A stretch of 64,000 nucleotides of DNA. It comes from Bacteroidota bacterium. GTDB lineage: Bacteria; Bacteroidota; Bacteroidia; Flavobacteriales; Schleiferiaceae. Position numbers and translations under genes: made by a program. Every line of letters starts with the position of its first letter. Position 1 is the stretch's first letter. Location of the stretch: positions 1 to 64,000 of the forward strand of contig JANSYJ010000010.1 in assembly GCA_024742495.1 (NCBI GenBank), written 5' to 3'. Positions 1 through 63,755 of this stretch are shown here, in pieces. Below the pieces are notes generated by a model. That model was not told the DNA's origin, searched no databases, and worked only from the letters and a program-made list of their open reading frames with translations.

Positions 1-105
1 GGAAAGCACAAACTGTCGGCTTTGAACGCCGTGGCAAATAAAATTGTATTACGAATTTTTGCTGTAGCCAATCGAGAAGAACCTTTTGTGAAATTAGCGG
101 CCTAA
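1..105 (+). CDS. IS110-family transposase, C-terminal end (partial)
   Basis: Reading frame 1 is open from the window edge to a TAA at 103-105 and encodes 34 residues beginning GKHKLSALNAVANKI and ending FVKLAA. The basic, helix-rich ending with the pattern KxxLNAVxxKIxxRxFAVxxRxxPF resembles the tail that follows the serine domain of IS110/IS116/IS902 (DEDD) transposases. The rest of the gene lies outside the window, so neither catalytic domain can be checked. It is followed directly by palindromic intergenic repeats, a usual neighbourhood for IS110-type elements. The family call rests on a short stretch and is moderate. Confidence 0.5.
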   Translation, partial: GKHKLSALNAVANKIVLRIFAVANREEPFVKLAA

Positions 106-137
106 AAGTTTGTTTTAATCTTAGAATGCTCACCATG

Positions 138-175
138 ACAGTCTAAACCTTGTCACCCTGAGCTTGTCGAGGGGC
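138..175 (+). repeat. REP-like palindromic repeat, copy A
   Basis: A 38-bp unit ending in the imperfect palindrome CCCTGAGCTTGTCGAGGGG. It matches 281-318 in direct orientation at 35 of 38 positions. The longer 48-bp span 128-175 matches the reverse complement of 62748-62795 at 45 of 48 positions. Motifs of the GAGCTTGTCGAGGG type are widely scattered intergenic repeats in many bacterial genomes. Confidence 0.8.
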
Positions 176-250
176 CGCTTCGCTGTTAGAACCTAGACCT
201 GAGATCAGTCGCTGTGCTCCTTGAGAGAGGGATGGCGTTTTAAAGTAGCG
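175..250 (+). repeat. Dispersed 76-bp element, left copy
   Basis: From CCGCTTCGCT to TAAAGTAGCG. The reverse complement of 63077-63152 aligns over the full 76 bp without gaps and with only about seven mismatches. A third, more diverged copy of the GCGAAGCGG end is at 63756-63802. It is noncoding in all frames and lies next to REP-like units at both window ends. Confidence 0.8.
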
Positions 251-40734: not shown

Positions 40735-40840
40735 TTCTAAAAAAAAAATTGTGTTAAGGATAGCCAACGTTCACAACCCTTGCCAGAGGTTAACTACCAC
40801 GTTCCCTAAGGGGCTGCAATATTACAACAAATCAATAGTA
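40735..40840 (-). promoter_or_regulatory. Candidate structured leader of rplS
   Basis: On the minus strand the 106-nt gap can form GGTAG/CTATC (five pairs, one G.U) enclosing AACCT/GGGTT around a CTGGCAA loop, and it contains two copies of GAACGT followed within a base by GG. It ends in a T-rich stretch directly before the rplS start. L19 leader motifs have been reported computationally in Flavobacteria; membership here is inferred, not shown. Confidence 0.35.
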
Positions 40841-60876: not shown

Positions 60877-62673
60877 ATGAGAAAGATTAGCATCCTCGTT
60901 TTTAGCCTCTTCCTAAGTAGCTTACAAGCTCAAAGTCTTTCCAGCCCAGAATTGCTCAAGGTTTTAAAGGGAGATTATAATCCAAGCAGCTATGCCGCTA
61001 GTCAGCCTATAAGCGCTACCGATCAAATAAGCTGCGAGCTGCTAAACTTAATATCACCGGATACGCTATTCCTTAACCTTCAAATTCTCACTTCCTATGG
61101 TACCCGTCACACCTGGTCGGATACGCTTAGTCAGAATGTGGGAATAGGGGCGGCACGCCGATGGATTCACAGCGAATTCGCCAAAATTGGAAATGCCAAT
61201 GAAGGTCGATTAAGACCAGGTTATTTCACCTTTGATATTACTAATAATACTTGTGGCGACCTCTATGGAACTAAAAATGTTTTAGGCGTTTTACCCGGCT
61301 CGGATACAACGGATTCCTCGGTAATTTTAATTATGGCCCATATGGATTCTCGATGCGAGGCGCGTTGCGATTCCAATTGCTATGCGCCCGGAGCGGATGA
61401 TAATGGATCAGGTACCGTTTTGGTGATGGAATTAGCGCGCCTGCTCAGTCGTTATACGTTTAATCACACTTTGGTATTTATGCTTACTAATGGGGAGGAG
61501 CAGGGCTTATTAGGAGCGCGGGCCTTTTCGGATTTTTGCGCCAATAATGGAATTAGCATTAAAGCGGTACTAAATAATGACATTGTGGGAGGAACAATTT
61601 GTGGAGAAACGGCTTCACCGCCCAGTTGCTCACCAGTTGGGGATATCGACTCCATTCGTGTGCGCATGTACAGCAATCCCTTGTCAGATCGCAATCCCTA
61701 TCAGGGTTACGCGCGTAGCGTAAAGATGAATTTCGATGAAAAGATCCGTCCCAACCTAAATGTGAAGCCCATTATTGAATTGGTGAACCAAGAGGATCGT
61801 TCAGGTCGTGGTGGCGATCATATTGCTTTTCGGGAAAACAGTTTTTTGAATTTACGCTTTACATCTGCCCACGAGCATGGCAATGGAAATCCCTTGGGAA
61901 CGCCAAATTATCAAGATCACCAGCATACTGGCAAGGATGAAATAGGGGTGGACCTCGATAGTAATGGGATCATTGATAGCTTTTATGTGGACTTTAATTA
62001 CCTCAGTCGAAATGCGATAATTAATGCCTCCGCGGCTGCGATGATAGATGGCGCCCCTCCAACCCCCGAGTTTATTCTCCATAATGAAAGTACCGGTTTA
62101 CGGGTAGAAGTCACCGACCCTAATTTGGCCTTCGAATATCGACTGGGTGTAAAAGGATCAGGTGGTGGAGAGTATGATTCTTTATACCGCTTTCAAGGAA
62201 ACTCCTTTCTTATTCCAGGTTTACAGGCCAATCAACTTTACTTAGTTGGTCTTGCTGCTTTGGATAGCAATGGGCTTATGAGTCCTTTTGGTCAAGATGA
62301 GCGCGGAACTTCGCCTATCAATAGCCCCAATGGAAACCCCGATAATTTGCCCTATTCCTATAATTGTATGCAAGTTTCCTTGCAGGAAAGCCCCCTTTAT
62401 AAGCGTGCTTCTTTAGAGCTAATGCCCCCACGTCCAAATCCGAGTGATGGCCGAACAGAATTAGTTTTTTGGCTGCGGGATGCCACTTGGCTTGGTCCAG
62501 CGAGCTTAGTGGTTTGGGATTATCAAGGGCGAGAGGTTTATCGTGAAGCTTTGAATTTAAAGCAAGGCGCCGGTAGTGTTCATTATTCCCATGCTTCTAA
62601 ATCAGGTCTGTATTTCTATGGTATTGAGCAAGAAGGACGAGTTTCTAGGTTGGAGCGAATGCTGATTAGGTAG
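60877..62673 (+). CDS. M28 family metallopeptidase with T9SS sorting domain
   Basis: 598 residues. Signal peptide (about 1-18, LSSLQAQS), an M28 zinc aminopeptidase domain (about 75-390) with metal ligands in ILIMAHMDSR, YAPGADDNGSGT, FMLTNGEEQGLLGA, NNDIVGG and FTSAHEHGNG, a fibronectin-like region (about 395-480) and a C-terminal type A sorting domain (PRPNPSDGRTELVFWL ... SGLYFYGIEQEGRVSRLERMLIR). An insertion with several cysteines (RCEARCDSNC) sits beside the metal site. It should digest peptides outside the cell. A TATCTTTA near-match promoter lies 37 bp upstream. Confidence 0.9.
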   Translation: MRKISILVFSLFLSSLQAQSLSSPELLKVLKGDYNPSSYAASQPISATDQISCELLNLISPDTLFLNLQILTSYGTRHTWSDTLSQNVGIGAARRWIHSEFAKIGNANEGRLRPGYFTFDITNNTCGDLYGTKNVLGVLPGSDTTDSSVILIMAHMDSRCEARCDSNCYAPGADDNGSGTVLVMELARLLSRYTFNHTLVFMLTNGEEQGLLGARAFSDFCANNGISIKAVLNNDIVGGTICGETASPPSCSPVGDIDSIRVRMYSNPLSDRNPYQGYARSVKMNFDEKIRPNLNVKPIIELVNQEDRSGRGGDHIAFRENSFLNLRFTSAHEHGNGNPLGTPNYQDHQHTGKDEIGVDLDSNGIIDSFYVDFNYLSRNAIINASAAAMIDGAPPTPEFILHNESTGLRVEVTDPNLAFEYRLGVKGSGGGEYDSLYRFQGNSFLIPGLQANQLYLVGLAALDSNGLMSPFGQDERGTSPINSPNGNPDNLPYSYNCMQVSLQESPLYKRASLELMPPRPNPSDGRTELVFWLRDATWLGPASLVVWDYQGREVYREALNLKQGAGSVHYSHASKSGLYFYGIEQEGRVSRLERMLIR

Positions 62674-62738
62674 TTCTTTTTGTTTTTTTAGTGAGCTCCT
62701 CGACATGCTCGGGATGACATTTTTAATGCTGTTATTGT

Positions 62739-62763
62739 GAGCTTGTCGCCCCTCGACAAGCTC
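62739..62763. repeat. REP-like hairpin
   Basis: GAGCTTGTCG (62739-62748) and CGACAAGCTC (62754-62763) form a perfect 10-bp stem around CCCCT. A diverged half-unit (CTCGACATGCTCGGGATGACA) precedes it at 62699-62719. Confidence 0.8.
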
Positions 62764-62795
62764 GGGGTGACAACGTTTAGGCTGTCATGGTGAGC
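62748..62795 (-). repeat. REP-like repeat, inverted copy
   Basis: The reverse complement matches 128-175 at 45 of 48 positions, placing the same unit at both window ends in opposite orientation. Confidence 0.8.
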
Positions 62796-63152: not shown

Positions 63153-63180
63153 TCTAAAAAAAGCCCTTCGAGCGAATATT

Positions 63181-63322
63181 GCTGCTCAGGGGCCCCCTCG
63201 CTCCGAAATGCCGTTTTTTGCTTGTTTTAGTTATTCGTCAATACGTTTTCAGGTAAAACTTAAACAGCGATTCAATATTGAAATTGGTTTTTACTAAATA
63301 GAATTGAGTCTGATTAGAGAAT
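63181..63322 (+). repeat. Diverged direct repeat, copy 1
   Basis: From GCTGCTCAGGGGCCC to TGATTAGAGAAT. Copy 2 at 63562-63705 keeps the landmarks GGTAAAACTTAA, AACAGCGAT, AATATTGAAATTGGT, TGAGTC.GATTAGAGAAT in the same order, offset by about 382 bp. Confidence 0.65.
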
Positions 63323-63372
63323 AGCTATTTGGATTTTGATAATAGCCCATTAAGAAAATCACTATTTCGGAG

Positions 63373-63552
63373 CTAGGGGGAAGCTTGCAGCGATAGGTGG
63401 GCGTAGGGTGGAATTGCGTCACGGCAAAGCCGGGACAAAGCATGAAACCCGGAGAATCACCGGTCGACCGAAGGGAGAATCGCCTTTAAGCTTCCTAGAT
63501 TTTCCGCCCGAGGCGGACAGGTTTGGATACTTTTTTATCATGAAAAAAGTAT
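63373..63552. repeat. Strongly structured noncoding element
   Basis: An outer stem is made of three collinear blocks: CTAGG/CCTAG (63373-63377 with 63494-63498), AAGCTT/AAGCTT (63381-63386 with 63488-63493) and GCGAT/ATCGC (63390-63394 with 63479-63483). Inside are CCGGG/CCCGG and CGGTCGACCG plus two GGAGAATC direct repeats. Two further hairpins follow: TCCGCC/GGCGGA (63503-63517) and ATACTTTTTT/AAAAAAGTAT (63527-63552). It sits in the spacer between the two diverged direct repeats. It could be a mobile-element end, a MITE-like repeat or a structured RNA. Confidence 0.55.
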
Positions 63553-63561
63553 TGGAAAGAT

Positions 63562-63705
63562 GCTGCTCAGGGGCCCTCCAGCTCCGTAGTGCTGTTAGTT
63601 GTTTTTGGTGGTAATTCGTAAGAACGATTCGGGTAAAACTTAATAAACAGCGATCTAATATTGAAATTGGTGATCACTAATCGATATTGAGTCCGATTAG
63701 AGAAT
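63562..63705 (+). repeat. Diverged direct repeat, copy 2
   Basis: Partner of 63181-63322. It begins GCTGCTCAGGGGCCC and ends CGATTAGAGAAT. Confidence 0.65.
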
Positions 63706-63755
63706 GATTATTTAGAACCATAACCAAACTCTTAGCAGCAAATAAGTCTAAAAGG

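What the first reader, a model, noticed from the sequence alone, without database searches (positions are those of the whole stretch)
63373..63552. Large folded noncoding element in a repeat-rich gap
Seen: a three-block outer stem (5+6+5 bp) closes a G-rich interior of about 85 nt that holds CCGGG/CCCGG, a CGGTCGACCG palindrome and duplicated GGAGAATC motifs, followed by two separate hairpins (6 and 10 bp). It lies exactly in the spacer of a diverged direct repeat pair, between REP-like units. Inference: a MITE-like or transposon-end element, or an expressed structured RNA. A link to IS110-type bridge RNA is conceivable given the transposase remnant at position 1, but nothing here proves it.
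Basis: partly seen in the sequence, partly recalled or inferred. Interest (0 to 1): 0.6.

Follow-up and report, generated by a model that had tools for sequence, protein, structure and literature searches.

The report
Repeated palindromic element, jumping-gene target
A roughly 190-base non-coding DNA element that folds back on itself is scattered through this bacterial genome and its relatives, it ends in a distinctive hairpin also seen in very distant bacteria, and in two sister species a jumping gene sits in, and appears programmed to enter, exactly that hairpin.

Summary
Window 63364-63554 is one of 8 long matches in its own genome, and the same architecture recurs in the genus and, more weakly, in other relatives. 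11 of 28 pairs change on both sides. It has no Rfam match and lies in gaps that are short in sister species (two loci). It is not a bridge RNA. Rather, an IS110 element in two sister species enters this kind of hairpin at 3 of 3 visible junctions, and that IS110's 5' noncoding region contains the hairpin's sequence where target guides belong (read by eye). The hairpin, X-T5/6-GG-NTAC-T6-X'-A6-GTAN, occurs in distant phyla. X matches the loop X' more often than chance, and the T-run mirrors the stem (p=0.011), which suggests a triple-helix pseudoknot or DNA triplex. Best reading: a non-autonomous, REP/MITE-like palindromic repeat acting as DNA. How it spreads is unknown: its genome has no Y1 transposase. 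RNA function is not excluded; no expression data were available.

The parts
63364..63554 (+). full element as matched by covariance model R1 (positions 1-178)
   Evidence: 157.8 bits, E 1.3e-33 (this sequence is one of the 22 the model was built from); 8 own-genome copies
63379..63386 (+). outer stem, 5' arm GGAAGCTT (partner 63488-63495)
   Evidence: helix 1: 7 of 8 pairs have a change on both sides among 22 sequences
63488..63495 (+). outer stem, 3' arm AAGCTTCC
63390..63394 (+). second stem GCGAT (partner ATCGC 63479-63483)
   Evidence: helix 2: 2 of 5 pairs with a change on both sides
63396..63461 (+). body with GGTG/CACC and GGGT/ACCC stems; a second sub-type has ACCG/CGGT and GAGC/GCTC instead
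   Evidence: 5 of these pairs change on both sides, essentially as two sub-types
63503..63521 (+). 19-base insertion with a CCGCC..GGCGG palindrome in the T-run before the terminal hairpin (4 of 8 own copies)
63525..63552 (+). terminal hairpin GGATACTTTTTT-ATCATG-AAAAAAGTAT; the part shared with distant bacteria; its counterparts in sister species hold IS110 junctions
63180..63363 (+). flanking repeat module B; its first part looks like an inverted copy of the element's start (by eye)
63561..63716 (+). second, diverged copy of module B
   Evidence: 77% identity
62815..63110 (-). another repeat that on the minus strand seems to have the same general design (type A, by eye, limits approximate)

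Best explanation
A non-autonomous, palindromic, REP/MITE-like repeat that acts as DNA. SHOWN: multicopy, species-specific sub-families with one architecture, covarying arms, much shorter gaps in sister species at two loci, and IS110 junctions inside this kind of hairpin in two sister species. INFERRED: the arms stay complementary because single-stranded or cruciform DNA hairpins are what copies and keeps the element (a trans-acting enzyme, replication template switching, or recombination between copies), and the terminal X-T6-GG-hairpin is the recognised end. UNKNOWN: the enzyme; the own genome has no Y1 transposase match.
For: 8 long matches in the own genome; model R1 finds 24 places there and matches in 14 of 36 genomes at E<=0.01 (sequences used to build R1 match by construction). 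11 of 28 pairs change on both sides; covariation score 0.325 against 0.144 in shuffles and at most 0.081 when slid. Frame-to-frame distance at one locus 957 with the element, against 160, 113, 138 and 62 in G002, G003, G001, G004; at the focal locus 1156 against 7 in G001 (differences of frame ends). No strand preference of folding: median z -2.45 on the + strand and -2.37 on the - strand, p=0.84, n=107; own genus -3.47 and -3.74, + better in 8 of 22. Orientation to neighbouring genes: 29 opp/opp, 23 same/same, 17 opp/same, 16 same/opp, 85 of 128 hits having both neighbours. No shared neighbouring gene: largest cluster 9 of 119 loci, an ABC-type ATPase by eye. IS110 in the hairpin at 3 of 3 visible junctions.
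Against: No mobilising enzyme identified: PF01797 absent from the own genome, and 0 of 15 Y1 loci examined (of 33 listed) had an R1 match nearby. Against that, all 5 family members outside the genus with R1 matches do have a Y1 gene (6 of the 10 without R1 matches also do), so a Y1 origin in the past is not excluded. No clean target duplication at the one filled/empty site read; the inserted block is about 800 bp and composite, so the element may travel in larger blocks by recombination. 17 of 128 distant hairpin hits lie in a frame of 120 aa or more, so not all are clearly intergenic. Loop complementarity and mirror symmetry could equally be an RNA pseudoknot; in the genus G-T cells (40) outnumber A-C cells (3), though that structure was predicted for the + strand.
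Confidence: 0.55

Rival explanations
1. An expressed structured RNA whose 3' end is a U.A-U triple-helix pseudoknot that protects or anchors it, as ENE/MALAT1-type triple helices do in eukaryotes.
For: Apical loop X' complementary to X before the T-run: 6 nt or more in 24 of 100 distinct contexts against 3.1 in permutations (maximum 8 in 500), many of them the same CTTGAT/ATCAAG or CTTGAC/GTCAAG pair. In the genus, pair 206-261 is AU 9, GC 7, CG 4, unpaired 2. T-run before GG mirrors the stem pyrimidine strand: C opposite C in 14 of 25 in mirror register, 0 of 19 in direct register; stricter test 11 of 16 against 41 of 122, p=0.011. Run lengths correlate, rho 0.69, n=138.
Against: Genus pair 207-260 is unpaired in 8 of 22. 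No strand preference in folding, no orientation bias, no terminator-like site and no promoter excess at the focal site, no expression data. A DNA triplex explains the same mirror symmetry. Many examples share organisms, and T-runs were partly imposed by the search pattern. The focal copy's T-run is split by an insertion.
Confidence: 0.25
2. A cis-acting transcription or mRNA 3'-end signal (terminator or mRNA stabiliser).
For: A T-run follows the closing stem in insertion-free copies; the focal copy lies between convergent genes.
Against: No preference for convergent (16) over divergent (17) gaps among 85; 0 terminator-like sites at the focal locus against 1.4 in shuffles.
Confidence: 0.1
3. 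An IS110 bridge RNA or a fragment of an IS110 end.
For: IS110-like frame remnant at the window start, by eye; IS110 junctions in the hairpin in sister species.
Against: PF02371 has no match in the own genome; the two guide loops are found in the 5' region of the sister-species IS110 itself, of which the hairpin is the target.
Confidence: 0.03
4. An attC-like recombination site of a cassette array.
For: Some copies lie among unidirectional small-ORF arrays and toxin-antitoxin-like pairs.
Against: Some copies lie beside ordinary genes (by eye); many spacings between the small ORFs look too short for attC (by eye). Integrase and core-site motifs were not searched.
Confidence: 0.03

Closest known systems
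REP/BIME repeats (GTAG- and CGTC-tagged; PMC3733652, passages read)
   Same: Palindromic repeats in species-specific families, often in opposed pairs; CGTC REPs also lack a dedicated transposase; REPs are IS targets (PMC1525189, abstract read)
   Different: REPs are 20-40 bp; this is about 170-210 bp with a multi-stem body. The letters GTAG (63403-63406) and CGTC (63417-63420, just before the inner palindrome) do occur inside it, not tested as tags
MITEs in Bacteroidota (for example the IS982-derived MITE of Cardinium, PMC9769881, first of three parts read)
   Same: Non-autonomous, lineage-specific spread
   Different: No parental IS was looked for or found; no clean target duplication at the one site read
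IS110/IS621 bridge RNA system (PMC11208160, passages read)
   Same: The sister-species IS110 has a CT at the junction, and its 5' region fits left/right target and donor guides
   Different: The focal element's kind is the target DNA, not the guide
ENE/MALAT1/telomerase triple-helix pseudoknots (recalled; PMC12501189 and PMC11411715 seen only in the listing)
   Same: Order of strands: pairing strand, U-run, stem with U-run, partner strand, A-run
   Different: Bacterial, in a DNA repeat, transcription unknown, triple helix inferred from symmetry only

Membership tests
REP/RAYT (REPtron) | RAYT/Y1 transposase gene in the genome | tested here: not met
   PF01797: 0 matches in the own genome and in G002-G005; present in 16 of 36 relatives, including G001 and G006 of the genus
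REP/RAYT (REPtron) | repeats flank the transposase gene | tested here: not met
   0 of 15 Y1 loci examined (of 33 listed) carry an R1 match at E<=1; one bare ACTTTTT..AAAAAGT match, in L300
REP | multicopy palindrome | tested here: met
REP | length 20-40 bp | tested here: not met
   matched unit 63364-63554
REP | unpaired GTAG or CGTC tag at one end | tested here: inconclusive
   both strings occur inside the element; whether they act as tags was not tested
MITE | filled and empty sites between relatives | tested here: met
   two loci; at the focal one only G001 is empty, G003 and G004 hold other repeats there
MITE | terminal inverted repeats shared with an autonomous IS, and target-site duplication | tested here: inconclusive
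   one filled/empty comparison, composite block, no clean duplication; no search for a parental IS
IS110 bridge RNA | lies in an IS110 element and carries target and donor guides | tested here: not met
   no PF02371 match in the own genome; guides found in the IS110 of G002
Rfam RNA families | match to one of 4227 models | tested here: not met
   focal: (only a chance-level MIR837 match outside the element, E 2.9); 18 loci with related hairpins: only a tRNA and an rRNA end
integron attC | integron integrase and core sites | not tested
   no search run
U.A-U triple-helix pseudoknot | third strand matching the stem purine run by Hoogsteen rules | tested here: inconclusive
   the focal copy itself has its T-run split
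U.A-U triple-helix pseudoknot RNA | transcribed and folded in vivo | not testable with these tools
   no expression data

The most novel reading that the evidence does not exclude
A bacterial family of palindromic repeat elements spanning several phyla ends in a conserved triplex-forming pseudoknot, X - pyrimidine run - GG - stem - X' - purine run, and IS110 elements evolve bridge RNAs programmed to that end, so the repeats serve as renewable safe landing sites for RNA-guided jumping genes.
Probability: 0.35. Interest if true: 0.85.

Novelty: new variant of a known kind. Interest (0 to 1): 0.6.

Why it matters
Repeats of this size are easily dismissed as genome clutter. Here one has a testable fold kept through compensatory change, a terminal motif that recurs in distant bacteria, and a matched RNA-guided recombinase in sister species. 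If the triple helix is real, it would be a triplex structure carried by a bacterial repeat family; if the IS110 match holds, it is a natural case of a bridge RNA programmed to a genomic repeat, and gives a ready target and guide pair for recombinase work.

Tried and rejected
RAYT origin: tested by PF01797 in the own genome and relatives and beside 15 Y1 genes; not supported for the present, though all 5 family members outside the genus with R1 matches have a Y1 gene. A shared helper gene near distant copies: none. Plasmid carriage: no match for the focal element or for a gammaproteobacterial hairpin locus, L213. Viral carriage: the hairpin pattern hits 4 stretches of the viral collection, not examined further. 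Rfam identity: none. Coding origin: the 68-aa frame over the element (63408-63614) has no Pfam match and ends early in copies that lack the 19-base insertion (38 codons in L003 and L004).

A first, broader mirror test (p=1.5e-14) overstated the case: C before a T-run is common anyway (41 of 122 uncapped hairpins), and the stricter test gave p=0.011. In one search, 10 of 10 capped stems that extend two or more pairs beyond the T-run have the C, against 1 of 6 single-C caps; this split was made after seeing the data, and 5 of the 10 are from two loci of one organism (L108, L168). In the permutation form of the test, perfect third strands were 11 of 74 against 3.3 on average, maximum 8 of 1000. 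A mixed C/T pattern recalled from proteobacteria found nothing in viral contigs. Paper searches for motif letters and related wording listed no paper that I recognised as describing this element; besides the papers named above I read passages of PMC12306157 and PMC2267715 and found none there. Nothing else was searched.

Full report
What was checked. The window lies in G000, contig C19, of a 3.6 Mb genome in 32 contigs. A same-genus genome, G003, is within 100 bases of the length of CP051243.1, 'Flavobacteriales bacterium isolate ih4', which has the hairpin at about the same places, so I take the genus to be in Flavobacteriales. The focal gap (1149 bp between the stop codons) lies between an M28-type peptidase gene (60877-62673, +) and a murQ-like gene on the minus strand (names by eye).

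It is repeated. Eight places in the own genome match the element over most of its length at 76-100% identity. Aligned with three copies from sister species G002, they fall in two sub-types whose stems differ by compensating swaps, GGTG/CACC against ACCG/CGGT and GGGT/ACCC against GAGC/GCTC. A wider alignment of 22 sequences (A3: G000 8, G002 2, G005 5, G003 5, G001 1, and 1 from another genus, G021) keeps the same order of stems with quite different letters. Three of the 25 places the script found were left out: L035 (contig end), L044 (interrupted by the IS110) and one copy in L049 without the hairpin; L048, whose hairpin is broken by another insertion, was kept. On A3, 97.8% of cells pair, 11 of 28 pairs change on both sides, and the covariation score is 0.325 against 0.144 for shuffles and at most 0.081 when partners are slid. 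The structure was derived from these sequences, and the changes amount to a few sub-family events. Arms of DNA palindromes can also correct each other by template switching (recalled knowledge), so covariation alone does not prove RNA function.

A covariance model (R1) finds matches at E<=0.01 in 14 of 36 genomes, the own one included: own 24, G003 25, G005 27, G001 6, G002 5, G010 10, G009 9, G021 7, G039 (another family) 7, and one or two each in G004, G006, G015, G019 and G037; the counts include related element types, and the 22 model sequences match by construction. In single-contig G005 they cluster at 1.01-1.034 and 2.883-2.891 Mb, often as diverging pairs 66-68 bases apart. Those islands hold arrays of small genes mostly in one direction (my reading), and toxin-antitoxin-like genes lie among the repeats there and in the own genome (ParE_toxin, HTH_3 and Gp49); other copies lie beside ordinary genes (by eye).

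It looks inserted. The distance between the frames of an SRPBCC-like and a universal-stress-like gene (names by eye) is 957 in the own genome, where a copy lies, and 160, 113, 138 and 62 in G002, G003, G001 and G004. At the focal gap the same measure is 1156 here and 7 in G001; G003 and G004 carry other repeats there, and G002's contig ends before the gap. The inserted block at the first locus is composite, and I saw no clean target duplication.

Non-coding. The 68-aa frame over the focal copy has no Pfam match and is not kept between copies.

The IS110 connection. In G002 an element that encodes a 336-aa protein with PF01548 and PF02371 interrupts one copy inside the terminal hairpin: GGATACT, the IS, then CTTTTTTATCATGAAAAAAGTATC. 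The last 72 bases of the same IS occur twice more, at contig ends in G004, at 97%, and both run straight into CTTTTGGTCAAGCAAAAGTATC and CTTTTTGATCAAGCAAAAAGTATC, which I read as the right part of that species' own hairpins; their left parts are beyond the contig ends. So 3 of 3 visible right-hand junctions are at the same place of such a hairpin; the left-hand side is visible in G002 only. G000, G001, G003, G005 and G006 have no match to this IS. The IS's noncoding 5' region is predicted to fold into two long hairpins within an outer stem. The first carries TTTTTGGATA, identical over 10 letters to the target left of the CT, and AAAAAG, the reverse complement of CTTTTT on its right; the second carries GCAGTAC, identical to the IS right end, and TACGAG, the reverse complement of CTCGTA at the left junction. 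Each occurs once in the 229 bases; the assignment to guides is by eye. It fits the rule in PMC11208160 (passages): left guides pair with the bottom strand, right guides with the top strand. The two letters after the left target guide do not match the CT. I infer that this bridge RNA is programmed to the hairpin. IS insertion into REPs is known (PMC1525189, abstract).

The hairpin reaches far beyond the genus. Tests not built into the pattern: the 32 letters before it pair with sequence further upstream (median z -1.48, 39% below -2, n=108). A core TKTYYGAG...GAGTTY occurs upstream in 18 of 108 against 0.1 expected, 0 on the other strand, and 0 of 128 downstream (four of the 18 are in one locus, L203). 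The hairpin loop is complementary to the letters just before the T-run (6 nt or more in 24 of 100 against 3.1, maximum 8 in 500 permutations). The focal genus has its own core, TTGC...AGCATGAAGC, so common descent of the sub-families is suggested by the hairpin but not shown.

Mirror symmetry. Where the stem's pyrimidine strand holds a C, the run before GG tends to hold one at the mirrored position: C/C 14, C/T 11, T/C 16, T/T 623 in mirror register, against C/C 0 and C/T 19 in direct register, over 111 distinct hairpins. With the background rate of C allowed for, the effect is weaker: 11 of 16 against 41 of 122, p=0.011. Run lengths correlate (rho 0.69, n=138), partly imposed by the search pattern. 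Mirror symmetry with X/X' pairing is what a pyrimidine-motif triple helix needs, as RNA pseudoknot or DNA triplex. In the genus alignment two of the three X/X' pairs change on both sides; one of these two is unpaired in 8 of 22 sequences. The focal copy's run is split by a 19-base insertion, so it may be a damaged example.

RNA or DNA. Folding has no strand preference; orientation to genes shows no clear bias in 85 cases; there is no terminator-like site, and promoter-like sites are 3 against 1.8 in shuffles, at the focal locus. In the genus G-T cells (40) far outnumber A-C cells (3), but the structure was chosen for the + strand. 17 of 128 distant hits lie in a frame of 120 aa or more. I lean to DNA, not strongly.

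Verdict. A real, repeated, structured, mobile-like element; ordinary in kind (palindromic repeat), unusual in size, in its widely shared terminal motif and in being matched by an IS110 guide in sister species.

Noticed in passing
window 1-106: C-terminal part of an IS110-like transposase frame (by eye) at the contig start; 132-150 of the first 150 bases recur at the ends of contigs C26, C30 and C10, including the repeat sequence after the frame, so this IS also seems to sit in a repeat. PF02371 found no match in the own genome.
   Followed up: partly
L041, L001, L048: Short CCGCC-GGCGG or CCGGC-GCCGG palindromes are inserted at several places inside copies of the element, including the T-run and the hairpin.
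   Followed up: no
L261-L262 (G005 1.003-1.040 Mb): Long run of small genes mostly in one direction with repeats between some of them; looks like a variable immunity or toxin island.
   Followed up: partly
L022 2696-4508 and 12529-13177: Toxin-antitoxin-like genes lie between repeat blocks.
   Followed up: partly
window 150-180 and 62700-62780: A second repeat, CTCGACAAGCTCGGGGTGACA and variants, occurs at both ends of the window and near several element copies.
   Followed up: no
L273 and L274: In the gap orthologous to the focal one, G003 and G004 carry their own repeats, different from each other.
   Followed up: no
L021 4674-11970: Several similar secreted-type proteins in tandem next to murQ (by eye).
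   Followed up: no
window 40765-40792: Rfam match to the L19-Flavobacteria ribosomal leader (35.2 bits).
   Followed up: no
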